Both the position numbers and the translations under genes were made by a program. A stretch of DNA of 64,000 bases, from positions 74,906,688-74,970,687 of the forward strand of contig NC_056000.1 in assembly GCF_018446385.1 (NCBI RefSeq). Reading direction: 5' to 3'. The DNA comes from Zingiber officinale (taxonomy: Eukaryota; Streptophyta; Magnoliopsida; Zingiberales; Zingiberaceae). Positions within the stretch are counted from its first letter, which is position 1. Each line of letters begins with the position of its first letter. Shown here piece after piece: positions 3,831 through 61,300 of the stretch. The notes beneath the pieces were generated by a model. The model saw nothing but the letters and a program-made list of their open reading frames with translations. It ran no database searches and had not been told where the DNA came from.

Positions 3831-4399
3831 TTCCATCAGTAGGAACGCCTCAAATCTCGATACATGCGGGTCCCAGCTAGATGGATCGCAAATCGAGAGC
3901 GATGAGCCTCCTGAAGTAGCTCTTGTAAGACCGGGTGAGACTGAGGTACACATAATCTGCCTCGAAAGTATATAATACCCTCCTTATCTCATGTGAACTC
4001 GGTCTGCTGTCCGGAAGCTATTTGGCTACCAATGAACTGAAAATGCTGATCACCGGCTTGGGCTTCTCAGATCCTCGTCCTGATCGATGACTGAGCAACC
4101 ATGGTAACAAGAATACCCTGCTCTATCTGTCCCTGCTCCTCAAGGCCTAACTCAGAAAAACCCTGAATCAAGTCTGTGACTGAAGCCCGGTGGCAAGCTA
4201 AAGTCCCTCTGGACTTCCTGCTGAGTGCATCGGCAACCAGATTAGCTTTCCCTGGGTGATAGCTAATGGTACAATCATAATCCTTTAGGAACTCCATCCA
4301 TTTCCTCTATCGGATATTAAGTTCCTTCTGGGTGAAAATATATTTGAGACTCTTATGATTTGTAAGAATCTCAAAGGTAATGTCGTACAGATGATGCCG

Positions 4400-4843
4400 C
4401 TAAATCTTCAAAGCAAAGATGATGGCGGCTAGCTCCAAATCATGTACAGGGTAGTTCTTCTCATGCTCCTTCAACTGATGAGAAGCATAGGAGACTACTC
4501 TGCCATGCTGCATCAGAACAGTGCCCAAACCCTGAAGAGATGCGTCGGTGTAGAGCACAAATTCGTCCTCTTTGGAGGGTAAAATCAAAATCGGAGCCGA
4601 CACTAATCTCCGCTTCAGCTCCTGGAAGCTGGTCTCGCAATTTTTAGTCCAAGTGAACTTCATGCCTTTCCTGGTAAGGCGTGTCATCGGCATAGCAATC
4701 TGGGAGAAACCCTCGACGAACTGTCTGTAATATCCAACTAGTCCCAGAAAACTGCGGATCTCCTGTACTGATTTCGGCTGTTCCCAGTTGGTGACAGCCT
4801 CGATCTTCTGAGGGTCTACTGAAATATCTCTGCTCAAGACCAC
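4400..4843 (-). pseudogene. Gypsy RT thumb / RNase H remnant
   Basis: The stretch shows the typical link between RT and RNase H ([19 protein letters not shown], then the catalytic DASLQGLG start of RNase H and [21 protein letters not shown]). It ends at a stop just after the acidic helix. The tail of the domain ([14 protein letters not shown]) is found separately at 4067-4297, so the domain is broken by at least one nonsense change. Confidence 0.88.
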
Positions 4844-4940
4844 GTGTCCCAGAAAACTGACTGAGGATAGCCAGAAAACACACTTACTGAACTTCGCATA
4901 TAGCTGATGTCGTCAAAGAGTCTCCAAGACTGCGAAGATG

Positions 4941-5630
4941 CTATGCATGTTCCTCCTCGGAACGTGAGTAGACCAATATGTCATCGATGAAAACGATAAC
5001 AAACTGATCAAGATACTCCAAGAATACGCAGTTCATCAAATCCATAAATACCGCTGGAGCATTGGTAAGCCCAAATGACATTACCAAAAATTCATAATGG
5101 TTGTATCTGGTACGGAATGCTGTATTCTGAATATCAGATTCTTTGGCTCTTAGCTGATGATATCCGGACCGCAGATCAATTTTAGAATACACTGATGTAC
5201 CTCTGAATTGATCCAATAAATCCTTGATCCGTGGTAAGGGGTACTTATTTCTGACGGTCACTGCATTCAGTTGTCTATAATCTATGCACAACCTCAGAGT
5301 ACCATCCTTTTTCTTGACAAATAATACCAGAGAACCCCACGAAAAAGCACTAGGGCGTATAAATCCCCTGTCTAAAAGCTCTTGGAGTTGAACCTTCAGT
5401 TCGTTCAACTCTTTTGGTGTCATACGATAAGGAACTTTCGATGTCGGTGTGGTTCCTGAAATCAACTCAATAACAAACTCCACTTGCCTTCTGGGAGGCA
5501 AACCTGGTAGCTTCTTTGGAAATACATCCGGATACTCTCGGACTACTGGAACGTCGGAGAGTTGAGAACTACTACCGTCTTCAGTATGAATCAAAGATAA
5601 TAGAAAACCCTGACAGCCATGTGACAACAA
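4941..5630 (-). pseudogene. Gypsy reverse transcriptase domain remnant
   Basis: The 229-codon open stretch contains the core RT signatures: the [14 protein letters not shown] block, [12 protein letters not shown], the [12 protein letters not shown] block, [16 protein letters not shown] and the catalytic FIDDILVYS (xxDD) motif. The catalytic aspartates are kept. Upstream the same strand carries the protease with a DIILGMDCL motif. Downstream a stop codon and a frame change separate it from RNase H. Confidence 0.92.
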
Positions 5631-5990
5631 CTTCTGAGCCTGAATCGTCGAAATAGTCGATATGTCATCGTCTCTGATGTCAGTGAAATCTCACGAGGGT
5701 TGGTTCGGAGGCCGAAATGTAGCCACCCTCGTCTGGCAATCAACAGTGGCATGATATGCTGACAAACAATCCATGCCAAGAATAATATCAAAGTCGACTA
5801 TTTCCAGTACTAAAAGATCTATCGTAAGTATCTTGTTGCCAAAGTCTAACGGGCAACCTTTGACCTCCTGGGGACGTCCAAAGCATCACCGGACGATAGA
5901 GACACGGTCAGTCGTTGCAGTCTGAAGGTGGGTAATCTACCAATCTCCCTCATAAAGGTACGAGATATAAAAGAATGCGGTCTCCTGGGG

Positions 5991-6560
5991 ACATTTTCTC
6001 TTGATTCGACTTAGCAAGGATACAAGTTAGTTAAGCATAAACAATTAGCATTAAAAGAAACAACAACTTTTAAAAATAGGTAAGAGACACCAAAGATTAC
6101 TTAGTTACAACCTACGTTGTTGTTAATCTAAGGAAAATGAAAGCACTAGAAAAATCTCTTTCGTTGAAGATGAAGAAGTCTCTTTCACTCTTTAAAAAGC
6201 TCAGAAAATAACTATGAATTGAATACAGAAGTTGTTATTGAATTCCTAGCTCCAAGGAGCTTTTTATAGCTCTTGGAAAAATGTTACCGTTGGCTAAAGG
6301 CACCTCCAAAAAGATCCAAGGCACCTCCAAATGGATAAAATTGTATCCCTTTGCAACAGTCACAGCAACGGTCATTCTTTACATTGGAGGCGCAAGGGCG
6401 CCTCCAACTTCATTCGAGGCACCTTCTCCTTGAGGCGCGAGGGCGCCTCCAAGCCTCTTGGAGACACCTTTCAGTAGATATATCATCCTCCAAGCTGATT
6501 TTCTTCACATGGGTGATGCTCCAGTCAACCGAACCATTTGTTCGGTCGATGGAACATTTA
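5991..6560 (-). mobile_element. LTR fragment, family also seen at 18263-18720
   Basis: On the minus strand this contains a TATAAAAAGC box (about 6260-6270) with a leader running down to about 6000, so it looks like the promoter and downstream half of an LTR. Positions 6371-6530 match 18263-18420 closely (the repeated GGAGGCGC / GGCGCCTCC blocks and TCTTCACATGGGTGATGCTCC-like stretch). Neither edge shows a clean target duplication. It touches the gypsy remnant on the left and an A/T repeat on the right. Confidence 0.6.
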
Positions 6561-7445: not shown

Positions 7446-8112
7446 GTTTTAATATTGAAAAAGGTTATTGAACCCATGTTAGATTCAAACTTAGCTTTGG
7501 GTTAATCAAGCAGGTTTCCTAAGGATAAGCTTTCAGTTCAGTGGCGAGGCATACGACCTACTTGGATATCATTAGACCACTTGCTGAAGGCTTTCCAAAC
7601 TGTTCCCGCCCAGAAAACTTAATACTAAATTTTGGTCTAACTAGCCCATGTTGGACTGGGGTAGCTTCGGTCAAATCCACTAAGTCTAGTGCTCCAGGTA
7701 GAATTTCATATTCAGCCTAGACATGCCTTTGACAAAGCTTCCTTGACGTACTATCATCCCAATCCATTCTGATGCTATGTTATAGGTTTGGTAAACCTTT
7801 TTCATCTAACCGTTCTAAGCAAAAATAAACCTAGTCCTAAGTATTGAGTTTGGTTAATTAAGTTGGTTGTATTATTTTTCTACTTGCTCCCCCTGAGTTA
7901 TAGCTTAGATAAGGTCTATCTAAGTAATGGATTTGACTCTTAGGGACCAAGTATAGATTTGGTTCAATTTGTTTGATTAAAAATTTTGTTTGAACTCATG
8001 CTTGGACTTGCCTTCCATTATTTTGACTGATTAAGGATAAGTATGATTTGTTTGTTTGTTTGAGTTTGTAACCGAGTCCTGATTTGTTGTACATGTCTCG
8101 TTGCGATCCAAG
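7446..8112 (-). mobile_element. Distal part of the minus-strand copia element
   Basis: On the minus strand the coding trace at about 8000-8112 contains a MYNKSGLGYK block, which is typical of the end of plant copia gag before the protease, followed by a stop. It joins in frame to the gag-like coiled-coil trace at 15293 if the element at 8113-15292 is removed. The remainder (7446-7990) has no recognisable pol; it holds a GGGGGAGCAAG stretch and is cut off at the A/T-rich repeat. The 3' LTR is missing. Confidence 0.65.
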
Positions 8113-8248
8113 TGTTGGTGCAACATCCCTCAGGTCAAGGTTGACCTGGGTGACCAAGCTGAGTCTTGGTTTGAGTTTAGATGTTTGACAATAAGAAATT
8201 GATTGAAGAAGAGTCAAGTAGGTCAAGGTTGACCGGATACTTGACAGG

Positions 8249-8845
8249 GAAGTCCTGGTGAGTGAAGCCAGGCAGAAGGAAAACCCTAGTGAGTGAAGCT
8301 AGGTGAAAGTCCTGGTGAGTGAAACCAGGTGAAAATCCTAGTGAGTGAAGCTAGGTGAAAGTCCTGGTGAGTGAAACCAGGTGAAAACCCTAGTGAGTGA
8401 AGCTAGGTGAAAGTCCTGGTGAGTGAAGCCAGGCAGAAGGAAAACCCTAGTGAGTGAAGCTAGGTGAAAGCCCTAGTGAGTGAAGCTAGGCAGATGGAAA
8501 ACCCTAGTGAGTGAAGCTAGGTGAAAGTCCTGGTGAGTGAAGCCAGGCAAGGGAAAATCCAGATGGATCAAGGATGATCGGACATATGGTGTTGGGAAGT
8601 CCAAGTAGGTCTAAGGATTGACTGGATACTTGGCACGAGGAAATACAGATAGGTCAAAGGGATTGACCAGGCCTCTGATGGAAGTCCAAGTAGGTCAAGG
8701 GAGTGACCAGATACTTGGCATGAATAGAAAAGTCTAAGTGGGTCAAAGGAATTGACCAGACACTTGGTGGGAAGTCCTAGCAGGTCAAAGGAGAGACCAG
8801 ATGCTAGGCATGATGTACCAACAGGTCAAGGTTGACCGGATGTTG
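8249..8845 (+). repeat. Covarying hairpin array in the 5' LTR
   Basis: Eleven short units alternate between CCTGGTGAGTGAAGCCAGG and CCTAGTGAGTGAAGCTAGG; the arms change together so that pairing is kept in all eleven. After these come longer modules of the form arm-GGTCA-loop-TGACC-arm, where the outer arms differ between modules but mostly stay complementary (CCAAGT/ACTTGG, CCTAGCA/TGCTAGG, CCAACA/TGTTGG). Confidence 0.85.
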
Positions 8846-8889
8846 GTTTGAGAGGCTTGAAACTTGGTTTTGGGCAAAAAGCAAGTGTT

Positions 8890-9140
8890 GGATCGATCAG
8901 TGGATTGATCCAGGAGTTGGATCGATCAGTGGATCGATCCAGGCTTCTCCTAAGCGAACAGAGAGCCTCTGGATCGATCCGTGGATCGATCAGTGGATCG
9001 ATTGGGACGCGGCTGCTTCGCGCATAAGCGCTGGATCGATCCGTGGATTGATCCGTGGTTCGATCCAGGCGCTCTGGATCGATCCGTGGATCGATCCAAA
9101 GCCTCCCCGATCGATTGGGAATATTCGAATCGATCGGGAT
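8890..9140 (+). repeat. GGATCGATC palindromic block in the 5' LTR
   Basis: Many copies of GGATCGATC and its complement occur in short order, often as pairs such as TGGATCGATC...GGATCGATCCA. Each unit is itself a palindrome core (GATCGATC), and pairs form larger inverted repeats. Long open frames here on both strands are a by-product of the repeat. Confidence 0.85.
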
Positions 9141-9650
9141 CCGACCGATGGCGTCGATAAAGGCCACAGGCGTTCATTTCCTTCGGCATCTCTTCTCCGA
9201 TTCACTCCAGATTTCTCGCCAGCTCCTCCACAGCACTCACAAAGCTCAGATCACCAGTTCTTGAAGGATCTTGGAAGTTTTCCAAGTCAAGAGGCGGATC
9301 AAAGCCAAGAAGAGAAGCTAGGGTTAGGGTTTATACTCATTGTAAGCTTGTAAGCTTGTATTTCTTGTATCCTTTCTCTCTCTTCTTGTATTGAGTCTTG
9401 TAGGGCTTCTCCGCCCTTGGTAGTTACCATAAAGGAGAGTTTTATTTAGTGGAGGGTGTGTGTGTTGGTGTGGATCCTTGGATTAGTCACCTCTTGTGAG
9501 GTGGATACCAAGTAAACCAACCGTGTTAGCGTTGTGTGATTTTTTCTTTGTATTTCCGCTGCACATCTTTGAAGGAACAAGCAACGCTGAGCAACGAGCG
9601 AACGCGACGAGCTATTCACCCCCCCTCTAGCTACTTTTGGTCCTAACAAG

Positions 9651-9662
9651 TGGTATCAGAGC
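9651..9662 (+). other. Primer-binding site (initiator Met-tRNA type)
   Basis: TGGTATCAGAGC lies two bases after the 5' LTR end and matches the 3' end of plant initiator methionine tRNA, the usual primer for copia minus-strand synthesis. Confidence 0.88.
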
Positions 9663-9782
9663 GAGGCCGCTCTTCACCGGAATCATCGCCGGAAGGGTCA
9701 AGCATAACAAGAAAAGCTAGAGGGTGAAGAAGTTGAAGCAAAAATTGTCAAAGTCAAAGATATCAAAAAGCTCAACTTCAAG

Positions 9783-11560
9783 ATGTAATTCCAAGATGGA
9801 CTTGGATTTGACACAAGGGTGGCTCCACCATACACTTTCACGAGTTTCGATTCTTGGAAATCAAGAATTGAAAATTTTATTATGATGGAGATAGAGCAAT
9901 GGTTTGCTCTAATGGAAGGCTTCGAGGCTCCAAGAAATTCAAAGGGCAAAGTTCTCAAGAGGAGCAAGTGGAGCAAAGAGCAAGTCCAAAGGTGCGAGGC
10001 CAATGATAAAGTGACCAAGCTCTTGGTAAATTTATTGCCAAGCACCATCCTTTGTAAAATTGGAGTATTTGAAGATGCAAAGGAATTATGGAGCAAATTG
10101 GCCAAGCTTCATGAAGAGATCCCCTCCACTGTACAAGAGCAAGAAGTATCCAGAGAGGGTGACTCTTTGGAGCAAGACCAAGAGGAGGGCTCCGAGGTTG
10201 AGAGATGCTCAACCTCCGAGGAAGAGGAAATCCAAGAAGTTTCATCCTCAAGGGAATGCAACGAAGGGAACAAGGAGGGAGCATACTCCTTGTTTCATAT
10301 TCAAGATGATGAAGCCTCCACCTCTAGGATTGAGGGGGAGCAATCCTTGGTGACACCGGATCAAGAAGAAGGAGAAGCTTCTACATCCGGGTCAAGAGAT
10401 GAAGAGATTGAAGAAGCTTCTACCTCCACGAGTCAAGAAAAATCAAATGGAGGAGAATCAAGATCGGATCAAGAGGAAGCTTCTATCTCCGGATCCAAAG
10501 GAAAAGATGCCACCCCTACAAGCAAAGGTATAAATATTTCAATTAAAAATAAAAATCATATTATATGCTTTGAGTGTAGGGAACATGGGCACTACAAGAG
10601 CAAGTGCCCTAAATTGGCCAAGAAGAAGGGCCAAGTGGCACAAAAGGGCAAGGCGAAGCCCAAGGAGATCATCCCCAACACAAAGAAGAGCAAGGAGCAT
10701 ATTATATGCTTCTCTTGCAATCAAAAGGGGCATTACCGAAGTCAATGCCCCAAGGGGAAGAAGATGGTCAAGGCTCAAGGAGGCATTCGTCAAGGGGGAG
10801 CCTCCAAGGTAAAGAAGAAGGTAACATTTATTGAGCCTACCCCTTTACATTATGGTAAAAAGCATGATAGTTCTAACTTATATCATTTTAATGCAATTTA
10901 CCATAAGAATAGAAAGCATGAGGGCTTTAAGGAAAAACATGTGGCCCTACATGCCAAAACTACCCAACCTAAGGTTAGGAAGGTAGATAGACACATGGGC
11001 GGGAACACTAAGGAAAATAGACACATGCCCAAGATCAAAAATGCTCATGGACCAAAACCTAAGGATTTAATGATAGAAAATCAAGTCTTGAGGTCAAGAC
11101 TTGACAAACTAGAAAAGACCCTAAAAAGGATGGAGAATATCCTTAAAGGGCAAAATGAGCAATACCTAGGGCTAGGTGCACAAAGGTCATCCAATGGCTA
11201 TAGAGGTTTGGGATACAAACCCAAAGCTAAAAGGATGTGCCTAGTTATCATAGGGTTCCATATAGCTATGGAACAAACCCTAAGTCTAGAGGTCAAGTCA
11301 AAGATATAAGGGAAGATATCCCTAGAAGTATCTTTGCAACCAAAGTGACTAAGACTTCTAAGAAGTCTAAGAAAGTCACTAACAAGGTCACAAGGGAGGC
11401 TATCCCTAGAGTTGACCTAGAAAATGTGACCAAGGCTTCTAAGAAGCCCAACAAGGTCACTAGGAAGGTATCTAGGGAAGTTATCCCTAGTGAGTACCTA
11501 GAGCATCCAAGGAGCACCAATAGGTGTTGGGTTCCTAGGAGCATCTTCTCTACCCCATAG
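9783..11560 (+). pseudogene. Gag-like protein of the gag-only element
   Basis: The frame from about 9789 to 11309 is open and encodes a copia-type gag: an N-terminal region (TSFDSWKSRIENFIMMEIEQ, ELWSKLAKLHEE) like the UBN2/DUF4219 group, a long Glu/Ser-rich middle, and two CCHC zinc knuckles (CFECREHGHYKSKCP near 10567 and CFSCNQKGHYRSQCP near 10708). The only in-frame ATG upstream (9783) is followed at once by TAA; a single C-to-T change of CAA would explain this. A frame change near 11237-11300 moves the C-terminus to another frame that continues to 11560. Gag binds RNA and forms the particle; this copy seems damaged at both ends, though most of it is open. Confidence 0.8.
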
Positions 11561-13715
11561 ATGGGTTAGAGAGTGTCAACTCCGATTAGAAGGGTAGTTA
11601 ACCCAACTTTGAGGAAATTGACACTCAAGGAGCATTTTCAAGGTTTTAGTTAACCTTTGAAAATGAAATGGACCTATTGATTACTCCTTGAAAGAGTAAA
11701 ATGTGTCTAATGGTGAAAAACTGATTTTATCTTAAAATGGCACAAATTGGGTTAGGCTTTGGCATTCTCTTGAAGCACTTTAGGGCAATCTAGGTTTAAG
11801 TTGTAAGTTTAGCTAAGACTTTAAGGATACTTAGATAGTTAATCTAGGTATATTTTATGTATGCTAAATCTTGCCATGATTGTTTGCCCATCATATGTCA
11901 TGACATCATGTCTAGTTTTGCATTCATGTTTTATTATGAAAAATCCAAAAATACCATGTCATGACATTCATACATCATGTAGTTATAGAATATTTTTCTT
12001 TTGAAAATTATTTTACTTTGATGTATGCCATAACATAATCATGCGTTAAATTTAATTCCTTGTAATTAAGGACAAATGGCATTTAACGACACTTATTGAC
12101 AAGTGACATCCTAGGTGGATGTCTAATATTTCTAAAATGCCTAGATAGATATGCATGATCCCTAGATTAGGGCAAAAACCAAAATCTACATCTCACAAAG
12201 ACTATAAGGTGACTTGTATGTGATTAGTGCACATTAGATACAAGTGAGATGTTAGGATGATGAACAAAGCTCAAGATGTTGATTTAGTGCATTCTTTTGA
12301 GTTTTAGGTTCATCAAAACACATAGTTATGTGTTTTCCCATCATTGGGAAAGCTAATGTACAAGTCATGTGCATTATGCCCAAGGAACATGATGGGATAT
12401 TGGTTTTGAAAATGTTTTAAAATGTTTTTGGAAAACCTTGGTGAAGGCTATCTTTTGATAGTAATCACCATTGAATAGTTAGACACAAACTTGAAGAAAA
12501 ACACTAAAGTTTTTGTAAGTTTTCAAGTTTGTGTCAATCTTTGAAAATATGATGTATTTTCATAGAAAGCTATTTTCCATGATTAAGTATGCCTAAATAA
12601 TGTCTACACGAAATTTCATGATTTTGGATTTTTGTAGAATTTTCTAGGGGTTTCGTTGACCGAAATGGAATTTCAGCAACTATCGAGCTCCGATCCATGG
12701 ATCGATTGAGTGCCTGAATCAATCCGTGGATCGATTCAGAAGGCAAGTCTCGCGAGCAGAAGCTCGCTGGATCGATCAGCCGATCGATCCAGGTAGTCTG
12801 AATCGATCAGTGGATCGATTCAGAAAGGTTCAATCGATTGGAACCCAACTCCAATCGATCCAAGTTGCTGATTTTGGCTGGGAAGGCTTGATTTCAGCAT
12901 CTTTGAACCTCTTTGAGTCTAGGTAACCATTCCAAACTCCTAAAATACATTTGTATACATACAAAGGGTGTTTTCATGTGAAAACAAGGATGGATTGGTT
13001 AAGGAAGGCTTTATTGAAGTTAAGGTTGAGGTTTGTTTCAAATTTTGAGTATTTGAACCTCAAAACTTCTACATTTGGGTTTCCTAAAGGTTTAGGGATT
13101 CCAAGTCATTGTTGGTGCAATGACAGAAGTCACCACCATGTCTTTAGGGGGAGGGACTCTTTAAAGACATGAAAAATTACTTTTCATGAACCTTGGAAGG
13201 TGGTTAACCTTCTGTAAAGAAAATGCTCATGTATGAGCTTTTGAACTTGAAATGGGGAGTGGATATCCTCATTATTTCAAGTGGGAACTCAAGTGGTTAG
13301 ATAATGCTCAAGGTTGGGTATTTGTCTACATTGAGGGAGAAGTTAAGGATAAATGAAGGGTATGAGACCTTCATTATCGTGTTGATCACAACGAGTGATG
13401 TTGTGAACAATGATGAGTAACTCTTCAGGGGGAGAGTCGTCAACAAATGGATTTGTTGATGTGTACCCAAAATTGGGGCATGGGTTGATGTGTGCCCAAA
13501 GATGGGTTGCTGTGTGCCACTAGGGGGAGAATGAAAGGACTTATGAATGGGTGTAAGTTAGGCTTTCATTACCTAGAGGGAGTGTGCCCTCGTAGGGGGA
13601 GAATGAAGAGCTTAATTTATATGTTCATTACCTAGTGGCATGAAGATTGAGGCTATAGGATTATCCTAACTTACATGTGGTATTGTAAGTGTTATTGTGG
13701 TATTGTCAAACATCA
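11561..13715 (+). mobile_element. Non-coding interior of the gag-only element
   Basis: No protease, integrase, RT or RNase H motif is visible on either strand. The region is A/T-rich at first, then has a GGATCGATC / GAATCGATC palindromic patch (12688-12860) like that in the LTRs, and several GGGGGAGA purine patches (about 13150, 13430, 13510, 13595). In autonomous copia elements this space would hold pol. Confidence 0.75.
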
Positions 13716-13728
13716 AAAAGGGGGAGAT
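13716..13728 (+). other. Polypurine tract of the gag-only element
   Basis: AAAAAGGGGGAGAT directly precedes the 3' LTR start, as needed for plus-strand priming. Confidence 0.85.
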
Positions 13729-15292
13729 TGTTGGTGCAACATCCCTCAGGTCAAGGTTGACCTGGGTGACCAAGCTGAGTCTTGGTTTGAGTTTAGATGT
13801 TTGACAATAAGAAATTGATTGAAGAAGAGTCAAGTAGGTCAAGGTTGACCGGATACTTGACAGGGAAGTCCTGGTGAGTGAAACCAGGTGAAAACCCTAG
13901 TGAGTGAAGCTAGGTGAAAGTCCTGGTGAGTGAAACCAGGTGAAAATCCTAGTGAGTGAAGCTAGGTGAAAGTCCTGGTGAGTGAAACCAGGTGAAAACC
14001 CTAGTGAGTGAAGCTAGGTGAAAGTCCTGGTGAGTGAAGCCAGGCAGAAGGAAAACCCTAGTGAGTGAAGCCAGGTGAAAGCCCTAGTGAGTGAAGCTAG
14101 GCAGATGGAAAACCCTAGTGAGTGAAGCTAGGTGAAAGTCCTGGTGAGTGAAGCCAGGCAAGGGAAAATCCAGATGGATCAAGGATGATCGGACATCTGG
14201 TGTTGGGAAGTCCAAGTAGGTCAAAGGATTGACTGGATACTTGGCACGAGGAAATACAGATAGGTCAAAGGGATTGACCAGACATCTGATGGAAGTCCAA
14301 GTAGGTCAAGGGAGTGACCAGATACTTGGCATGAATAGAAAAGTCTAAGTGGGTCAAAGGAATTGACCAGACACTTGGTGGAAAGTCCTAGCAGGTCAAA
14401 GGAGAGACCAGATGCTAGGCATGATGTACCAACAGGTCAAGGTTGACCGGATGTTGGTTTGAGAGGCTTGAAACTTGGTTTTGGGCAAAAACCAAGTGTT
14501 GGATCGATCAGTGGATCGATCCAGGAGCTGGATCGATCAGTGGATCGATCCAGGCTTCTCCTAAGCGAACAGAGAGCCTCTGGATCGATCCGTGGATCGA
14601 TCCAGATGTTCCAATCGATCAGTGGATCGATTGGGACGCGGCTGCTTCGCGCGATAAGCGCTGGATCGATCCGTGGATCGATCCAGGCGCTTTTCCAGAG
14701 CACAGAGGCGCTCTGGATCGATCCATGGATCGATCCAAAGCCTCCCCGATCGATTGGGAATATTCGAATCGATCGGGATCCGACCGTTGGCGTCGATAAA
14801 GGCCGCAGGCGTTCATTTCCTTCGGCATCTCTTCTCCGATTCACTCCAGATTTCTCGCCAGCTCCTCCACAGCACTCACAAAGCTCAGATCGCCAGTTCT
14901 TGAAGGATCTTGGAAGTTTTCCAAGTCAAGAGGCGGATCAAAGCCAAGAAGAGAAGCTAGGGTTAGGGTTTATACTCATTGTAAGCTTGTAAGCTTGTAT
15001 TTCTTGTATCCTTTCCCTCTCTTCTTGTATTGAGTCTTGTAGGGCTTCTCCGCCCTTGGTAGTTACCATAAAGGAGAGTTTTATTTAGTGGAGGGTGTGT
15101 GTGTTGGTGTGGATCCTTGGATTAGTCACCTCTTGTGAGGTGGATACCAAGTAAACCAACCGTGTTAGCGTTGTGTGATTGTTTCTTTGTATTTTCGCTG
15201 CACATCTTTGAAGGAACAAGCAACGCCGAGCAACGAACGAACGCGACGAGCTATTCACCCCCCCCCCCCTCTAGCTACTTTTGGTCCTAACA
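13729..15292 (+). repeat. 3' LTR of the gag-only element (1564 bp)
   Basis: Matches the 5' LTR from TGTTGGTGCAACATCC to TCCTAACA. It is 28 bp longer. Differences cluster in the first hairpin units, in the GGATCGATC block (14500-14790, which has an extra GAGCACAGAGGCG segment and altered repeat order) and in the C-run (longer here). One short hairpin unit near 14056 has unmatched arms (CCTAG with CCAGG). Confidence 0.92.
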
Positions 15293-15456
15293 CCAAGTAC
15301 CATATTTAGACACTTGGATCCCATTTCGAACTTTTCCAATGTTTTCTTGAGTCGCTCGACTTGACCTTTCAAATCGGAATTTTCTTCCTCAAGCTTTTTA
15401 ACTTGAGTTGAAGTTCCGATTTGAACTTGATTAGTCGAGTCACTTAAGTTAACTTG

Positions 15457-16823: not shown

Positions 16824-16847
16824 ATTGATAGATCGAGTAGTGCGATA

Positions 16848-16869
16848 GAGGGGGGGGGGGGGGGGGGGG
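16848..16869 (+). repeat. Homopolymer G-run (about 22 bases)
   Basis: An almost pure run of G follows GATAGAG. It is a C-run in LTR orientation and sits at the same place as the C-runs in the other LTR family (9619, 15258, 60081). Run length may be affected by sequencing. Confidence 0.85.
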
Positions 16870-17309
16870 AATATCGCGTCTTTTAAAACTTTTCTTATCG
16901 TTTTTTTAACACTCAAAGTTAAGCAGCGGAAATTAGAAAAAGACACAATTCGGTTACTTCGTTCGGAGCCTAGCTCGATTCCTACTCGAAGGTCCGCGGT
17001 CCTTGACCGCACCGATGGGCAAAGCACTATAATCCTTCTTTCCGAAATCCTCGGAAAGAAGTGAATCGTACAATGGAGCAAGATAGTAACACCCTACTAT
17101 CTTGCTTAAATAAAATTACAAAGCAAGCTTTAATTAAATTATACCGACAATGAATTGCAGATGAAGCTTAGGTTGGCACTCCGGATAATGTTGCGTGCTG
17201 AGCTGACGAAGATGAGTAGCGTGAGCAGCTTGCAGAGTAGCACAAGAATTGATCAGAAGGTCCTTGTTTGCCTCTGTCTTCGAGCCTATTTTTATAGATG
17301 TACTGGAGG

Positions 17310-17735
17310 TTCGGTCGACTGATCCCACTGTTCGATCGACCGAACCCGCTCCCTTCCTTCCTGGCTTAAGTTCGAAGCTGGCTCGATCTTTCGCATTTAC
17401 TGGTCTTTAATGGTTCGGTCGACCGATCATTCCTTTCGGTCGACCGAACAGCTTCCTTCCCTGTTCATCGTGATTCTGCCGAGATCATCATTTAATGCTA
17501 AATAAATGCTGATTGAATCGGTCGACCGATCCCCAGGTTCGGTCGATCGATCAGCTTATTTCCTTTGCTGCTGATCGATGCTGATGATCTGTCCTATACT
17601 GAGTCACTATGATTCGGTCGATCGATCAGTCTTTGATCTAACTTTGACTCAGTTCTGATCTAATCTGATTTCTGTGCTGATTCTGCTTGGTTCGGTCGAC
17701 CGATCCTACTATTTGGTCGACCGATCAGCTCAGAT
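17310..17735 (-). repeat. TCGGTCGACCGA palindrome cluster in copia LTR
   Basis: Repeated pairs of the 12-base palindrome TCGGTCGACCGA and variants (TTCGATCGACCGAA, TCGGTCGATCGA) are spaced by short A/T-rich or C-rich linkers, forming larger inverted repeats such as GTTCGGTCGAC...GTCGACCGAAC. Confidence 0.8.
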
Positions 17736-18262
17736 ATGCAAAACAGTATTAGACAAAAAAATCTCCTGCAAAACAGATGTAAGAGCAATAATATAAAACA
17801 GAAATAATATGCAAGACAGTAGGACTGTCTTGATCTCAACTTTTGAAACCTTCCCGGTTTCTTCAGTTGGATCAGCGACCTAAGGTTATTCCCTTCGGGA
17901 ACCCGACCTCACTGTCGCTCCTCCAGTTATTTACCTCAACCTACCTGCCAAACTTAGATCCTCCAGATCTAGTTTGGACTTTTCACTCAGCCTTGATCGG
18001 CTCCCCAGGACTTTTCCTTTGATCTTTGATCCTCCAGACCTCTCGATCACACCGCCAAGCATCTGGTCCCTTCGACCCACTTGGACTTGCACCTGGGTTC
18101 CACGATCTGCTAGATTTCTCCTTCCTAGCCTCCAACTAGGTCTTTCTCGGTTGAGTAAACATCCTGCACACTCAGTCAACTTGTTAGATCACAACAAGAC
18201 TTAACTTGAACCTTTGACAATATCAAAACTTAGGTTTGAATCTAGTGCAACTTGCACCAACA

Positions 18263-18720
18263 ATTCTTTACATTGGAGGCGCAAGGGCGCCTCCAACTTC
18301 ATTGGAGGCACCTTCTCCTTGAGGCGCGAGGGCACCTCCAAGCCTCTTGGAGACACCTTTCAGTAGATATATCAGCCTCCAAGCTGATCTTCTTCACATG
18401 GGTGATGCTCCGGTCAACCGGAGTTAAGTTCACCCGAACCCAACTTCGACCTTCTCCTCGAGCAGGCTTCCTCCCTGGCTTCTTGTCCCTAGGATATGTC
18501 GTGTGCATCCTTCTTGTCCACCGATGTACTCTTCACAGCTTCTCGTCCCTCGGATGCACTAAGCCGTCAATTCGCTTCCTGTGTCATCCTTCTCATCCAC
18601 TACATCTTCCGCTCAACTTGTTGTGCTCCTAAGTTCCTGCACACTTAGACACAAAGCATCAAACACAAAAGATCTAACTTAACTCGATTGATTACATCAA
18701 AACTTACCTGGGATACTTAC
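18263..18720 (-). mobile_element. LTR fragment, same family as 5991-6560
   Basis: The first 160 bases match 6371-6530 nearly base for base. The rest (to about 18720) is the more upstream U3-like part on the minus strand. The copia LTR at 16826-18262 abuts it directly. Confidence 0.55.
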
Positions 18721-29411: not shown

Positions 29412-32400
29412 TCAGCTAGTCTTTGTCGACATACCATCTTTAACAGGGCTAACTGATTTACTCAGCTTTTCCTGGGATCTGTCATTCATACTTTCTTGAG
29501 CTGAGGTAACTACCTTAAGTGGAACTTTGATCATTTTCTTAGGATTCTCAAATTTTTCTGCAGTCCTTCCAGCTTTATCTTTTCTCAAAGGCTTCTTCAC
29601 TGTAATTGTAGTAGGACTATCTACAGGAGGAATGTTCTCTTTCATGGAGTTATTTGTTTGTTTACCACTGGTGTCCAGATCTTCATCAGGAAGAAGGGCT
29701 CGACGGCTTAATCGAAGATGACCCTTTTGGTTAATCTAGAATCCAAATATTGTCATCATAATGTCAATTCACAAAGGTTAAGTCCAGATAAAATTAAGAG
29801 AATAAAAGCACCCGCCAGTTCACAATCTTTAATTGGTAGGAAATGAAAGTAATATGAGTGCACAATATTTAAAAAGGCCAATGCAGCACCAACTTGTATA
29901 TATGAAGTATGATTAGTTATGCTTAATTAACAAAATTGAAGATATATCCAGATTGACTGCCTCATACCTTCTTTTATATGAAACTTGTGTATTGTCTACA
30001 CTTTTCGCATAAAGACAATATAAACATCAAGAGCACTAGGGAGATTGATAAACAACTCGTATAACAAACAAGCAAAATTCCTTGCCCTAGACGGCAGTAG
30101 ACAATTTAATCCCTTTTAAAGTAATATATGATATATAGAGAGAGAGTTTTGTTACCCTACACACCCATCCGAGCACCTTGTGAGCACCTAGTGTTAATTT
30201 TATTTTATTTTCACTTCCGTTAGCCTAAATACTATATTCTAAAAAAAATTAACACTAGATGCTCATAGATGAGTGTGTAGGGTAACGAGCCCTAAACCCT
30301 AAATACTATACCCTAAACTCTAAGCCCTAAAAAAAATTAATACTAGGTGCTCACGGGGTACTCACAGATGGGTGTGTTGGGTAACATTCTCCTACAAATC
30401 AACCCAGCAAACAAAGTAGAAGAAATTAAATATCTGATTAAAGTATAACTACAATAGTTATTAGACAATGCAACATTGTTCAGAATCATCTCTCAAACTG
30501 AAGCTTAAAAGTTTACACTATACCTACATGAAGCTGATAATTTTGATCAAACCACTAAACTAAGTGACAGCATAATAGCTTTTATTCAAGTTCCTCATTT
30601 GTTACCAAGAATTCTGATCCATGTTATACGAGGATGGATCTGGTATATCAGGTATATTACCTAGTTTACAAATCATATATTTGTGCATGTGTAGGGAAAA
30701 CAGAATTTTATAAACAGCAAAGATGTTAAGTATCAGAAGGTTATTGGTCTGTACATTTAAAATTGTTAATATTGAGGTTAATGGAGTGTAACTTTCTTCT
30801 TAATGCAGTTTAAATTGTATTACAAAAGGATTAACTGAAACAGACTAAGAATAAACTAAAAATCTTAGCGTAAGGCTAAGCTAAGAGGGAAGCACAGGAA
30901 ATGCATCTAGTAAATGTGGATAGTCAACCAACCTCAATAAGTTTCACATCGATGCGGTCTCCCACTTTTACAACCTGAAATGAGGTACAAAACAAATGAG
31001 ATTGATCAATTCACTGGACATGATGCGTGCAAGTATGATAAACAAGAAGAAATATTGTTCTTACATCTTCAGCATTGGCCAACCAAGTAGAACTAAGTTC
31101 ACTGATATGACATAGGCCCTATAGTAAATGAAGAAGGCAGCATATATTAAATAATAGAATGGCGAGCAGTTTAGAGCAGAAGTAACAACACAAAGGTAGC
31201 CATCCACATCTTCACAAAGAATCATAATAGACAACATAGATGTAAAGAACTTCTCATTGTAGCATTTAAGAGACTACAATACATTTACTAACCATATGTT
31301 GGGGCTAATAAGAGTATCCATTAAAATATTTTTGGTATCAATAGTAAGAAAAATTATCATGAAAAAACCATTATATTGATTCTATCGGTAAGCATTGAAC
31401 AATGCATCAAATCAAGGCCAACAACCTCTCTTCCTGGTGCAATTTCTACAAAGGCTCCATAAGGTGCTATCGATTTGATTTCACAATTCCTGTGTTCAAT
31501 TAGAAGAAAATGTGTCAGTTTCTGAAAAAAAATATATATTGGAATGATATCATGAGACAAAACAACAATTCCCTTCATCCACTAATTGCAGCCATAATTG
31601 AAATACCTAACTCGATACAATTAATATCTTCAATCTTTGAAATGCAAAATTCATATCAAGAAATTTTATTAGCACAGAAAACTTCCTAGGTAATCTTCAT
31701 GTTAGATACCTGTCTAAACGGACCTATACGTAATCACAGGGTTGTAAAGTTATAAATACTTAGGGCAAGAAAACCATAATAATATTCTCACTCACTCCAA
31801 CGTGGTAGGTATCAGAGTCATTTCTTCTTTCGTCTCATGCAGCCTGTAATCGTTGTGGTGACCTAGGTGTATGCCTACTAATGTGATGTTGCTTACAGCA
31901 CTTCTAACAACTGCCCACATCCTCATGCAAATGACAAAACCCTCATGTTGGTACTTGTTACATGGCACTGCTCACTTGCACCCTCTCAAGAGAATATATT
32001 GCACAAGTTGGATTCTCTATAGTGCCACCTTAGTCACTTGAAGTAATCGTGCAATGCCAATCCACCCAAGTGCTGACTCAACTGCCCACTCCACTGTGAT
32101 CCAACCATGTGTTGCCCCTTTGTGTGCTATCCAACATCGTGCTATGCCTCCTCTTGCATATCCTGCATGACAAAAAGAGCTCTTTTGGCAACAAAGAGCA
32201 AAACCTTGGGTTCTATCCTTGTAAGGAAGAAGTGAGCAAAACCTCTTGTTCTCCTTGTTGGAAACTAGGATTCATTGAGAGCTTCTCCCTTGATTTTGGG
32301 TAAGTAAACCCAACAAGAGGTAGGTAAGCTTCCTCCCCTTGTTCTTTGCTTTTGTTCTAACTCATTCTTTACATCATTCTCTTTTCTTAGATGAGTCCAG

Positions 32401-55300: not shown

Positions 55301-58300
55301 TGTAATCTGATCCAGGCTGTACCTCTCAGATCAGATCTTGCATTGCCCACAGTCCAGATCTGCATCCCAAGCTGCAGTAGACACAAGTTGCATTGCCTCC
55401 AGATCTAATCCAAACTACACAAATCCAGGTTTTATCTTCCTGGTATCAGATTCTTCTAACCATAGATCCCACCATTCTAGCCAAAACGTTGTGTCAACTG
55501 CGGTTATCTCTTCTTCGTCCCGTCTTCAAATGTTTCTCATATGATTATGATACCATACCCTCCACCACCACATGTTTCTGCAGCACCTCTACGGCCAAAC
55601 TCTTGCTCATCTGTTTCTCCTGAATCAACAAACCAAAAAGAGATCATAGATACTTTGCCCTTCTCTCAGATACTAGTTGAAGACTTCATTGCTAGTAGCC
55701 TCCCGGCACCCAATGTGAAGCAATAGCAGCAGCCTCCACTGGCACTACAAGGTGCACTAGTCATTTTAAGCTCAAGGCACCTATATCTGCTCTTCTCTAA
55801 AATACTCATCAATGACTATGTTGCTAGTCGCCTCATGCAATAACCTATATGAAGACATAGAAGCAACCTCCACTGACACAACAAAGCATACCTTCCATTT
55901 TAAGGTATGAAGTTGGAAACATCTTCTCAAATCTCAATCCAAGCTGGTCAGACAGGTAAAAATTTTTATTCCATCTTTATTCCACCAATTGACCAGCACT
56001 AGATAAGCTCAAATACCTTGTATGTGTGCAGAAGACTCTGTTATGCTGCCATCGTGACGATCACCCTCCATGAGACCAAGCTTCTTCCACAACCCTCCCT
56101 GGAGCCCGAGTTCATCCACAACCTTGAATGCAACACTTGAGTCCAAGCATCTTCAGCCATTTGTCTGCAACCCTCCCCCAAGCTTGTGTATCTTCTATTG
56201 TTCATCCGAGAGCCTCCATCCATGCTCTAATGTCTTGCACAATCTACGTCAAAGCTTGTGGGCTCCTCTAGACATAAAGCCTTAAATGTTATGAATGATT
56301 GTGAGGAGCTTCTTCTCCCAGTTTTGCAACTTGGAAGAATCTTGTAGTAGAGAGATCATGACTCGTGTTTCTCCAGTGACAGTCTACACCTTCTCAAGCT
56401 AGCTTCCTTCCCACTCCTCTTATTCTTCTTCTTTTCCCCTACCCATCAGAGTGGCCAATATCATGCCAAAACTATATCATTCTGTTCAGAGAGACCCAAC
56501 TTGTAGCATGAGTGAAAATTTTAAACCTTGCCTGTAAGCACATCCATACTTTTTGCCCCCAAAATTGTGTGAACCATTCAACGCTCAGTCCAACGAGACT
56601 AAAATATAGAAAAATAACTTTAAAAATGGATGATTTTGAAAACAAAGAAGCAGTAAGGATAAAGCATCTTGATCCATACATATTGTTAGTAGATGTACAA
56701 TCATAGTATGAGCTCACAATGATCCAAATTGTTTTACATGTTTATCTAACTTAACTCGTTGACAAAGAATAATAGCGCAATTGTAAATCATGTTAATCCC
56801 TATAGATTTATGTTTAGATACATGGATGCTATTTGGCCTTTCAACTCGATTAGGGTGATAGGCATCGAATACTAAAATATATTAGATACTATTAGTTTGC
56901 TTTTGCAGATGAATTACTACAAAAGTTCATGTCGGGGAATCAAATTCTAAAGATCGAACCTCTATCATCAATATAGCACTATCAGTCCCCGCAATTATCA
57001 AATCTAATTCTGAATCTTCCATCTCTTTGGTAGTGGGATTGACAATAAATTTATCTCCCACTAAGCCAATTCTGACTCCAGCAATTATTTTAGTATTAGG
57101 CACCTCCGAAAGAGCTCTGCGTTTAAGCAATAATTAGCACAAAGTATTGCACTGTAACTAACCAACGGTACAACTTGAAAGGCTAATAACAGTATCTCCG
57201 GTAGAAACAAGACAAAGATACATAAATGTGCATTAAATAGACTTACACAGCTATGCCTGCTGCAGTGACAGATAAACAATCAGGAGAATGAATGCCATCA
57301 TAACTAAATACCTACAGAACATAAGATTTTGCAATTTAAGCTGCACTCACACTTTACAATTTCAAAACTGATAGCAAGGGATCATTTATGGTAAGTAAAA
57401 GATCAGAAACTAAAGACTTAGTGAGAAAGAGGATTTAAAAATTTCACAAAATCCATTTCACTAAACTAACCAGGTTTAATACACTACAAGTAAAAGAAGC
57501 AATGTCTTCAGAGAATATAGGAAACTTCAATAACAAGAAGTAATAGCTGATCCAGTGAGATGAAAGGAAAAAAAAAACTAAAGGACAGGATCAGCTAACA
57601 AAGTGAAAGATATCCGCATCAGAAGCATTCTTGTGAATTTAGTATCTGCTATATATGTTGGACCAGATGAAAAAATTTAACTTTGCTACTAGCAACCAGA
57701 TTCCAGAAGTTGCTAACATTTTTCAGACTGAGCTACACGATATTCTCAAAATAAGCTGATAAGATTGTTGGTGCAATATCCCCTAGGTCAAATTGGCCAG
57801 GTTGACTAAGCTTGAGTCTTGATATTTGGGTTTCGATGGTTGACAATATGTGGAGATTACAGATGCAATCGTCCAATTGGGGAGATTGTTGGAACAATTC
57901 CCCTCTGGTCAAGACTAGTTTGATGTGAAGAAGAGTCAAGTAGGTCAAAGTTGACCGGATAGTTGACTAGAAAAGTCCTAGTGAGTGAAGTCAGATAGAT
58001 AGAAAGTCCTAGTGAGTGAAGTCAGTAGAAGGAAAATCCTGATGAGTGAAGTCAGGTGAAAGCCCTAGTGAGTGAAACTACGCAATTAGAAAGTCTTGGC
58101 GAGTGAAGTCAGGGAGGCGAAAGTCCCGGTGAGTGAAGTCGGGCAGTGGAGAAATCCTGGTGAGTAAAGCCAAGTGAAAATCCTAGTGAGTGAAGCTAGG
58201 TGAAAGTCCTAGTGAGTGAAGCTAGGTGAAAGTCCTGGTGAGTGAAGCCAGACAGATGGAAAGTCCTACTGAGTGAAGCTAGGCAGATGGAAAGACAGGG

Positions 58301-61300
58301 TGAGTGAAGCCGGACACATGGAAATCCAGGTGGATCAAGGTTGACCGGACACTTGGTGTTGGTAAGTCCAAGTATGTCAAAAGAGTGACAGGATACTTGG
58401 CACAAGGAAATCCAGATGGGTTAAGGGTGACCGGACATCTGGTGGAAGGAAATCCAAGTGGGTCATGGAGGACCGGACACTTGGCACTAGACGGTAAGTC
58501 CAAGTGGGTCAAGGTTGACCGGACACTTGACACGAGAAGAAAAGTCCAAGTGGGTCAAAAGATTGACCGGACACTTAGTGAAGAAGTCCCAGCAAGTCAA
58601 GGTTGACCGGATGCTAGGCATGAAGAAGTCCCAACATGTCACGGTTGACCGGATGTTGGGTTTGGGAACCCTAGACTTGAGTTAAGCAAGTCAAAGGAAG
58701 GTCAATCGATCGGATCCTGATGAGTGAAGCCAGGCAGGCGAAAGTCCCGATGAGTGAAGCTGGGGGGAAATCCTGTTGAGTAAAGCCAGGTGAAAATCCT
58801 AGTGAGTGAATCTAGGTGAAAATCCTAGTGAGTGAAGCTAGGTGAAAGTCCTAGTGAGTAAAGCTAGGTGAAAGTTCTGGTGAGTGAAGCCAAGCAGACG
58901 GAAAGTCCTAGTGAGTAAAGTTAGGCAGGTGGAAAAACCTGGTGAGTGAAGCCAGACACATGGAAATCCTGGTAGGTCAAGGTTGACCGAACACCTGGTG
59001 TTGGGAAGTCTAAGTAGGTCAAAGGGTGACTGGATACTTGACACAAGAAAATCTAAATAGATTATGGGTAACCGGATATCTGATGGAAGGAAGTTCAAGT
59101 GGGTCATAGAGGATCAGACACTTGCACGAGACGGTAAGTCCAAGTGGGTCAAGGTTGACCGGACACTTGGCACGAGGAAACTAGTTCAAGTGGGTCAAAA
59201 GATTGACTGGACACTTGGTAAAGAAGTCTCAATCGAATGCTAGGCATGAAGAAGTCTCAACAGATCACGGTTGACCGGATGTGTGATTTGGGAACCTTGG
59301 ATTTGAGTTAAACAAGTCAAAGGAAGGTCAATTGATCAGCCGATCGAATTGAACCGTGTTTCAATCGATCAGCCGATCGATTGAAGGTGGGCTGCGATTG
59401 AATGCTAGCCCAATCGATCGATTGGAAGCAAAATCGCGAGCACAGAATGCTACCCAATCGATCGGGCGATCGATTGGGGGATGGAAATCGCACGCGACCC
59501 GACACGAGGAACGCTGAATCGATCGGGCAATCGATTCATGCTTTTTCTAGAGAGCACAGAGGCGCTCTGAATCGATCAGCCGATCGATTCAAGCCTCTCC
59601 AATCGATTGGGATATGACCGTTGCGAAAGAAGCGCACAAAAGCCTTCTTCCTCATAGCGATTCGGCAGTTCTTCCACTCCACTTCTTGCGATCATCTTTC
59701 ACAGGTTTACGCCAGTTCTTGAAGGTGTCTTGGAGCAGAGTGTAGCTGCACTTCCAAGATCAAGAGGCGTTCCACACAAGAAGAAGAAGCTAGCTAGGGT
59801 TTTCATTTATGTAAATCTTGTAAGAGATTCTTTGTATTCGCTTCTTCTTTTCTTATTGTTGTATTGAGAGGTTGTACAAGGTTTCTCCACCTTCGGTAGT
59901 TACCGAGGAGTATTTTTTATAGTGGATGAGTCAGTGAAGGTCGGATCCTTGGATTAGTCACCTCTTCTTAAGGCGGATACCAAGTAAATCTTTGTGTTAA
60001 CATTGTGAGCACTGGTTGAGTGTTTTCCGCTACAACAATATCATCAAAGAAAGCAACCGAAGCGCGACGAGCTATTCACACCCCCCCCCCTCCCTCTTCT
60101 CTAGCTACAAATCGACCCTAACAAAGATGAACATTAAATTAGCGATAGCAAATTAAAGATATCCTGAAACACAGTCTCATGGTGTAGCAAACATCCTCTA
60201 CCAATAGATCAGGTAGTTGACTTTGCTTGTTATCAGAAAGTTTGTTAAGGCATTTATTGAAAAAATTGAAATCATTCATAAATACAAAGTACAAAAGCAT
60301 AAACAAGTTTCTTTTTTTTGGAAGGAAAAATATTTTTCTCCTAAACAAAAATGTAAATTTCATATGCATCCAGAACAAGATCAATAAACTTGTTCTATAA
60401 AATTAAGAGAAAACTACTATGTTTTGCAACTGTCATGCCTCGTGATAAGTTGCACTCATTTGGGAAGTGCAACAATAATATTTTAACTATCATTTTAATA
60501 TACTACTACATGAAAGTACAAAAGCATCACATTTGGACAATTCCAATTGACAGGTATGAAGAAACCACAGCAGTTTACCCATGATAATATTTGTGTTTCG
60601 TGATAGAAACCCTTTGGCATGGTTGGACGCAATGGTCTATCTATCAACCTGCAAATAAGAACCTGAAAAATACCATGACTTTTTTAGCAACATAGAACTT
60701 TCTGCAACTCTGTAAAAAAATTGTTTATCCTGACCTCATGATCTTTTGCTCTTCCTTCTCGTTTGAAGTAACCACCACTGGATCCATGAAAGATATCAGC
60801 AATCAAGAAGGAAGATATCAAATTAAATAATTCTGTACGATACATACCTAGTTCGACCAGCAGCTGAGAGACGCTCTTGATAATTTACAGTGAGTGGGAA
60901 AAAATCAGAAGGCTCGCTGGGTACATCAGATAAGCACACCGAGCAGTGAACAATCTGCAACTCCAAACATATAGAGTAAAACGAATAATATCTGGAAAAG
61001 GCACTCTATCAACCAAACAGGACAGTTAATTTTTCAGGCACTTGACCTGCTAAATTCTTAGAAATTTTAAGATTCACAGTTGCATAAAGTATATCAGACA
61101 ATTATAAGCTTGTTTAAGATCATAAACACCAGAGTATCGGATTCAAGCTCAACTGACAATGAAAAAACAATTGAAAAATGCTTTAAAATGAGTCACTATA
61201 AAATAATGTGGAAGAAATTGAAGGATTAGCATGATTACACTATCCAATATCTAAACTCTTGGTTAACTAGTGATAACATGGAAAAGAACTGAAGGAAATT

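What the first reader, a model, noticed from the sequence alone, without database searches (positions are those of the whole stretch)
8249..8845. LTR built from hairpins whose arms change together
The sequence shows eleven short units of the form CCTRGTGAGTGAAG-CYAGG in which every CCTGG arm is answered by CCAGG and every CCTAG arm by CTAGG. In the relative at 58030-58200 other pairs occur (CCCGG with TCGGG, CCTGA with TCAGG). The following longer modules (CCAAGT/ACTTGG, CCTAGCA/TGCTAGG, CCAACA/TGTTGG around GGTCA...TGACC) do the same. Compensatory change is the mark of structure kept by selection or by a copying process that works on hairpins. I know of no described plant LTR organised this way. 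Inference: the transcript or single-stranded cDNA folds into a hairpin chain, perhaps acting in packaging, strand transfer or escape from (or production of) small RNAs.
Basis: partly seen in the sequence, partly recalled or inferred. Interest (0 to 1): 0.75.

Follow-up and report, generated by a model that had tools for sequence, protein, structure and literature searches.

The report
Plant retrotransposon built from hairpins
The flagged stretch is the control region of a defective plant jumping gene, and the hairpins noticed there turn out to run through nearly the whole element, far more densely than in the DNA around it, for reasons that are not yet known.

Summary
The stretch is the U3 part of the 5' LTR (8113-9648) of a gag-only Sirevirus (Ty1/copia), 8113-15292, target duplication CCAAG. 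All 11 short units pair perfectly, but there are only two arm classes. The longer modules differ: 9 of 12 stem pairs change on both sides (covariation 0.398, shuffled 0.214, 0 of 500); a third palindrome block co-varies too. Palindrome-rich Sirevirus LTRs are already described (PMC2829016). Unexpectedly, hairpins tile the element from gag to U3: excess folding energy averages 36.8%, 33 of 33 fragments above 3%, and 14 of 14 further copies of the internal piece average 25-39%; the 262 fragments of 18-58 kb average 3.0%. The folding ignores strand and reading frame, and recent changes are not compensated. Long-term selection for a compact fold, or palindrome-correcting copying, fit best; the data do not decide. 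Divergent subfamilies could not be fetched.

The parts
8113..9648 (+). 5' LTR of element A (TGTTGG...CTAACA), 1536 bp
   Evidence: LTR alignment, ends
8214..8244 (+). first long module, arms TCAAGTA/TACTTGA around GGTCA..TGACC
8254..8547 (+). short-unit array, 11 hairpins, two arm classes
8559..8847 (+). seven further long modules: outer arms vary between modules, inner stem GGTCA/TGACC (inverted W-box-like cores, name recalled)
8887..9138 (+). third palindrome block (ATCGATC-n4-GATCGAT), CpG-rich, counterpart in kind and place of the published Sirevirus repeated motif
9155..9163 (+). TATA-like CGATAAAGG downstream of the third block (weak match to the published motif)
9617..9631 (+). polyC-rich stretch near the LTR end (Sirevirus integrase-signal position); coordinates counted by eye
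   Evidence: sequence printed, LTR end
9649..9662 (+). AGTGG + PBS TATCAGAGC
9789..11309 (+). gag-like ORF (506 codons stop to stop), zinc knuckles, weak Retrotran_gag_2; hairpin-tiled
11310..13728 (+). non-coding internal region, hairpin chain; no Pfam domain in the three ORFs of it that were scanned
13146..13726 (+). five AGGGGGAG octamers (13146, 13427, 13522, 13594, 13719); the last is the terminal PPT followed by AT/TG
13701..13809 (+). inverted repeat around the PPT/3' LTR junction (17 of 18); coordinates reckoned from the offsets
13729..15292 (+). 3' LTR of element A, 1564 bp; K2P 0.0159 to the 5' LTR
8108..8112 (+). target site duplication CCAAG (partner 15293-15297)
57766..60123 (+). 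solo LTR B, related, TSD AAGAT; two short arrays (57977-58314, 58716-58956), long modules and third block, partly decayed
16826..18262 (-). LTR of a second Sirevirus-like element C with CGGTCGACCG motifs

Best explanation
Shown: the stretch is the U3 of a gag-only, non-autonomous Sirevirus, and is the U3 segment of a hairpin chain that runs from the gag ORF through the non-coding body to U3. In the U3 and the part of the body that were sampled, the chain is a property of the family, not of this copy. Two layers overlap in U3: conserved palindromic cores (GGTCA/TGACC; ATCGATC/GATCGAT), of the kind known as Sirevirus repeated motifs, and outer arms whose sequence varies between modules while pairing is kept. 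The alternating short units are tandem copies of two founders. Inferred: over the long life of the replicating lineage pairing was kept because a compact, locally folded RNA or cDNA helps an element that is copied in trans (stability, packaging or poor access for silencing), similar to genome-scale ordered RNA structure of some RNA viruses. Once a copy sits in the chromosome nothing repairs its stems and they decay.
For: Identity: five PPT octamers, AT/TG site, 17/18 inverted repeat, CA/AGTGG-TATCAGAGC, polyC, TSD. Tiling: local folds without G-U, z -13.6 (gag), -18.5 (non-coding), -18.0 (U3); three 2-kb host pieces z -0.6, 0.0, -1.2. MFED 36.8%, 33 of 33 fragments above 3%, against 9.0% and 10.9% for 1.1-1.3 kb coding segments of two viruses (MNV, HCV) in passages of PMC3950689. 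Fourteen of 14 other copies average 25-39% over the internal piece. Covariation between modules. Palindromic cores: 14 TTGACY sites in 748 bp (8113-8860) versus 1.06 per kb outside the elements. Paired sites change less than unpaired ones among 14 copies (0.034 versus 0.047 per site). The older solo LTR B has decayed stems.
Against: No sense-strand signature: z alike on both strands (Wilcoxon p 0.50); G-U share ratio within about one sd of shuffles. Among 14 copies, distinct stem changes seen in two or more copies are 11 G-T, 15 A-C, 10 other, 0 compensated, so present-day selection on sense-RNA pairing is not seen. The synonymous-codon result (z -10.4) does not show a preference for synonymous sites: the same fraction is lost in wrong frames and in non-coding DNA; helix register is not significant. 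Other retroelement pieces of the window have milder excess too (C gag side 9.8%, 4000-5900 9.7%, C LTR 20.5%). One of 30 host pieces reached z -9.1; 109 of 262 host fragments exceed 3% MFED and 5 exceed 36.8%. In some searches the counts of pairs changed on both sides and of pair types do not exceed the shuffles (77, 412 and 140, 349 of 500).
Confidence: 0.4

Rival explanations
1. Palindrome-correcting copying: during reverse transcription or replication the nascent strand folds back and copies its own other arm, turning imperfect palindromes into perfect ones. Hairpins then accumulate everywhere without being useful.
For: Strand-symmetric, frame-blind, mostly Watson-Crick stems; dense in gag and non-coding alike; covariation in two module families and two paired double changes (with one uncompensated change) in a tandem duplicate beside gag. 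Such a mechanism is argued for RNA genes in PMC8794818 (abstract and Discussion read).
Against: Changes in stems within the young family are almost never two-sided: 2 of 318 changed cells among 14 copies of the internal region, 2 of 188 non-reference cells in the long modules of 40 copies. Gag of the other Sirevirus C is only mildly enriched (z -2.4; its side of the element MFED 9.8%) though it too is reverse-transcribed.
Confidence: 0.28
2. DNA-level cis-regulation only: the palindromes are paired transcription-factor sites (W-box-like GGTCAA/TTGACC, CpG-rich ATCGAT motifs) and folding is a by-product.
For: Core columns are among the most conserved; 28.9 TTGACY per kb in 8550-8860 against 1.06 outside; strand symmetry; a regulatory role is proposed for Sirevirus repeats in PMC2829016.
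Against: Outer arms co-vary without a fixed sequence; gag and the non-coding body are tiled too; only 15 (left) and 14 (right) of 23 modules keep an intact W-box-like core.
Confidence: 0.15
3. Whole-unit copying of founder units with no constraint on pairing.
For: Short array: two classes make 442 of 479 units in 40 arrays; array length varies from 10 to 21 units.
Against: Does not explain the long modules, whose arms differ from one another, nor the unrelated hairpins of the body.
Confidence: 0.12
4. Hairpins as small-RNA sources in the host's silencing of the element.
For: Maize Sirevirus LTR palindromes attract small RNAs (passages of PMC10760457).
Against: Perfect arms in element A are 6-12 bp, short for Dicer-like substrates (recalled); five weak miRNA-model matches are far below gathering scores. 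No small-RNA data available.
Confidence: 0.05

Closest known systems
Sirevirus LTR repeated motifs (PMC2829016; OPIE-2/PREM-2 CACCGGACTGTCCGGTG)
   Same: Palindromic repeats in the upper part of the LTR upstream of the promoter; PPT cluster, AT/TG, PBS junction, polyC signal; third block is CpG-rich as published (o/e 1.37)
   Different: Two extra upstream blocks without CGG-CCG core and CpG-poor (o/e 0.10); several module types with variable, co-varying arms in one LTR; hairpins through the whole body
miRNA-like structured regions of maize Copia elements (PMC10760457, section 10 and passages)
   Same: Copia elements enriched in local hairpins
   Different: There concentrated in the LTRs; here gag and non-coding body are hairpin-rich as well
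Genome-scale ordered RNA structure of RNA viruses (PMC3950689, passages)
   Same: Folding excess spread over a whole genome including coding sequence
   Different: Here a DNA-integrated retroelement; MFED about 37% versus 9-11% in the two quoted viral segments (different folding program)
Gag-only non-autonomous LTR elements (TR-GAG; listing only, definition recalled)
   Same: LTRs, gag-like ORF, no pol found
   Different: Sirevirus signature and hairpin tiling; gag aligns to C's gag over 91 residues only

Membership tests
Sirevirus | Terminal PPT AGGGGGAG followed by AT/TG | tested here: met
   13719-13726, AT, TGTTGG
Sirevirus | Several PPT copies in the linker, near the 3' LTR | tested here: met
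   five octamers within 583 bp of the 3' LTR; two more in gag (10333, 10793)
Sirevirus | Inverted repeat bordering the terminal PPT | tested here: met
   17 of 18 bases
Sirevirus | 5' LTR junction CA/A(T or G)TGG + TATCAGAGC | tested here: met
   CA/AGTGG TATCAGAGC
Sirevirus | PolyC-rich signal near the LTR end | tested here: met
   CACCCCCCCTCTAGC, read by eye in the sequence printed
Sirevirus | Palindromic repeated motif with CGG-CCG core in a CpG island before a TATA box (13 of 21 elements in the paper) | tested here: inconclusive
   CpG-rich palindrome block present but core ATCGAT; TATA only weakly matched
Sirevirus | RT/RNaseH phylogeny in the Sirevirus clade | not testable with these tools
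   no pol found in element A (ORF lists; Pfam on selected ORFs)
Gag-only non-autonomous LTR element | LTRs, TSD and gag ORF without pol | tested here: met
   Pfam run on selected ORFs, not on every frame
Genome-scale ordered RNA structure | MFED above 3% across the genome | tested here: met
   33 of 33 fragments of 9649-14790; 45 of 45 of 8113-15292
Genome-scale ordered RNA structure | structure formed and used in the RNA | not testable with these tools
   no probing data; strand signature absent

The most novel reading that the evidence does not exclude
A lineage of LTR retrotransposons whose transcribed body, coding sequence included, has been remade into an almost continuous chain of short perfect hairpins, with pairing kept while sequence changed. 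The LTR array is only its most visible part.
Probability: 0.4. Interest if true: 0.8.

Novelty: new variant of a known kind. Interest (0 to 1): 0.62.

Why it matters
Palindromic LTR regions of Sireviruses are known, but why they exist is open. An element that is hairpin-rich from gag to U3, with at least 40 full-length U3 matches and 2374 unscored or scored first-look candidates in one genome, makes that question testable: one can ask whether pairing is kept by selection on the RNA or made by copying errors, using natural copies of different age.

Tried and rejected
Rejected: short-array covariation as proof of structure (two founder classes). Rejected: the synonymous-codon test as evidence for selection at silent sites (control). 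Inconclusive: G-T versus A-C mismatches. 7 to 5 in near-perfect palindromes of 9649-15286; 11 to 3 on the plus-strand fold of gag, non-coding and U3; 10 to 2 at arm position 4 of the 40 arrays, the ten G-T in nine contexts of which some share descent (that rescan, without the filter, lists 10 and 3); 112 to 116 cells in 14 internal copies. Taken together no sense-strand preference. Rejected: described RNA families (best matches far below gathering scores). No relatives found in viral contigs or in the protein collection (which scored 7264 candidates and kept none). Four single matches in bacterial and archaeal contigs are about the number chance gives (estimate of my own, not computed by a tool). 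Paper searches for prior reports. Their listings (capped, e.g. 12 of 76, 6 of 70) showed no LTR element tiled with hairpins throughout, but only openly licensed papers are held and I opened four. Bousios 2016 was not held; I know it from passages in PMC10760457 and from recall. Rows dropped: units with fewer than 3 of 5 paired arm positions were left out of the 479, which favours pairing; 26 of 40 internal pieces were not used (25 without a match, one matching only the far end), as each insertion was fetched on both sides. Pieces of both LTRs of one element are among the 38, so copies are not all independent.

Full report
What the stretch is. The finding (8249-8845) lies inside the 5' LTR of an LTR retrotransposon. 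The LTRs are 8113-9648 and 13729-15292, both TGTTGG...CTAACA, flanked by the 5-bp duplication CCAAG, and differ by K2P 0.0159 over 1523 aligned sites (which took the 3' LTR six bases short). Between them is a gag-like ORF (9789-11309, zinc knuckles; weak Retrotran_gag_2, E 0.0089) and non-coding DNA in which Pfam found no domain in the three ORFs scanned. Residues 19-109 of the ORF align to the gag of a second element C in the window (28 of 91 identical). I tested the Sirevirus features listed in PMC2829016 (parts 1-3 of 7 of its body read). Five AGGGGGAG octamers before the 3' LTR, AT/TG, a 17/18 inverted repeat at the junction, and CA/AGTGG-TATCAGAGC are met; a polyC stretch sits near the LTR end. 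I call it a gag-only, non-autonomous Sirevirus ('element A'). B (57766-60123, TSD AAGAT) is a related solo LTR. C (16826-18262, minus strand) is the LTR of another Sirevirus-like element with CGGTCGACCG motifs.

Layout of U3 (offsets in the 3' LTR). First the short-unit array (from 137 bp), then the long modules (from 437 bp; one lies before the array), then a third block of ATCGATC-n4-GATCGAT palindromes (from 751 bp), then a weak TATA-like site (1066 bp). The third block is CpG-rich (observed/expected 1.37) and matches the published Sirevirus repeats in kind and place; the short and long modules are CpG-poor (0.10). The long modules hold inverted TTGACY cores: 28.9 per kb in 8550-8860 against 1.06 per kb outside the elements. 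I recall TTGACY as the W-box bound by WRKY factors.

Is the co-change real? Short units: 11 of 11 in A5, 10 of 11 in A3, but 3 of 12 and 3 of 9 in the two arrays of B are perfect. On 21 distinct units the covariation score is 0.319 against 0.238 shuffled (1 of 500 at least as high), resting mainly on one position. After the genome search answered I fetched 38 further U3 copies: 442 of 479 units in 40 arrays are CCTAG/CTAGG (244) or CCTGG/CCAGG (198), and arrays of 10-21 units largely alternate the two. That is copying of two founders. Long modules: 23 modules (A3 8, B 15), 9 of 12 pairs changed on both sides (2 of 500 shuffles reach this), 33 cells, score 0.398, shuffled 0.214, 0 of 500; slid versions at most 0.099. 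Third block: 14 units, score 0.256 against 0.139, 0 of 500, but the number of pairs changed on both sides (4 of 11) is reached by 77 of 500 shuffles. A tandem duplicate beside gag (11342-11421/11423-11502) has two paired double changes and one uncompensated change (my reading). Units and modules are related by descent, so these shuffles are not probabilities.

The larger feature. In a scan of 319 windows of 250 nt 25 of the 40 most extreme lie wholly in element A and one straddles its end; 30 of 35 A windows have mean z below -3 (gag 7 of 7, non-coding 10 of 11), against 7 of 191 in 19.4-57.5 kb, 7 of 40 left of A, 3 of 6 in C's LTR and 5 of 11 in B. Local folding without G-U pairs gives z -13.6 for gag, -18.5 for the non-coding body, -18.0 for U3, -2.0 for R-U5, -2.7 for the 5' UTR, -2.4 for C's gag, -7.1 for C's LTR, -6.8 for B, -3.5 for 4000-5900, and -0.6, 0.0, -1.2 for three host stretches (20 shuffles each). 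Ten of 10 further sub-segments of A from gag to U3 have z between -4.6 and -15.8 (60 shuffles). As MFED, 9649-14790 averages 36.8%, 33 of 33 fragments above 3%; R-U5 11.9%, C's LTR 20.5%, C's gag side 9.8%, B 16.6%, 4000-5900 9.7%, three host stretches 0.4, 1.9, 0.3%. Over the whole window the means are 32.5% for 45 fragments of A and 3.0% for 262 of 18263-57765. In PMC3950689 (passages) the threshold is 3% and coding segments of two viruses have 9.0% and 10.9%; the folding program differs. Fourteen of 14 other genomic copies of the internal piece average 25-39%, with single fragments as low as 0.7%, so it is a family trait there; gag of other copies was not fetched.

What keeps it? The folding is alike on both strands and G-U use is not clearly skewed to the sense strand. 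Synonymous shuffling of gag destroys it (z -10.4), but equally in wrong frames and in non-coding DNA, so this says nothing about silent sites; helix register is not significant. Differences that arose within the young family are mostly uncompensated. In 40 U3 copies the long modules show 2 cells with both sides changed against 83 G-T, 54 A-C and 49 other cells; of these, 40 of each kind belong to three positions that are the same in 40 of 40 copies, and 34 G-T to one common wobble, leaving 9 G-T, 14 A-C and 9 other. In 14 internal copies 112 G-T, 116 A-C, 88 other and 2 two-sided cells of 4762 (the structure was taken from A's own fold, which favours pairing in A). Paired sites changed somewhat less (0.034 against 0.047). 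So pairing is not repaired in the chromosome, and the covariation is old. Either long-term selection for a compact fold or past palindrome-correcting copying (compare PMC8794818, abstract and Discussion) is open. I lean to selection, without strong evidence.

Limits. Divergent subfamilies could not be retrieved: the genome search answered once in 29 tries. The 40 full-length U3 matches are 91-100% identical to the query, and only 40 of 2374 first-look candidates were scored. One of 30 host pieces reached z -9.1, and 5 of 262 host fragments exceed A's mean MFED, so strong local structure by itself is not unique; its extent along one element is what stands out. Organism and autonomous partner are unknown.

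Noticed in passing
window 11751-11752: The window copy lacks about 171 bases that the other aligned internal copies have; that stretch also folds into hairpins.
   Followed up: partly
window 30001-30450: Strongest single folding signal of the window outside the element (MFED 89.9% at 30151), perhaps an inverted repeat.
   Followed up: no
window 50554-50602: Perfect 23-bp hairpin with a 3-base loop, MITE-like.
   Followed up: no
window 6374-6531 and 18263-18420: Direct repeat of 158 bp (97%) carrying the palindrome TTGGAGGCGC-n4-GCGCCTCCAA, abutting the LTR of element C.
   Followed up: no
window 58004-59300: Solo LTR B contains the hairpin region twice (copies 642 bp apart).
   Followed up: partly
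L034, L046, L017, L026, L045: U3 copies with expanded short arrays (21, 18, 16, 16 and 15 units), so array length changes by unit gain and loss.
   Followed up: partly
window 4941-5630: Reverse transcriptase fragment (RVT_1) on the minus strand, another retroelement.
   Followed up: no
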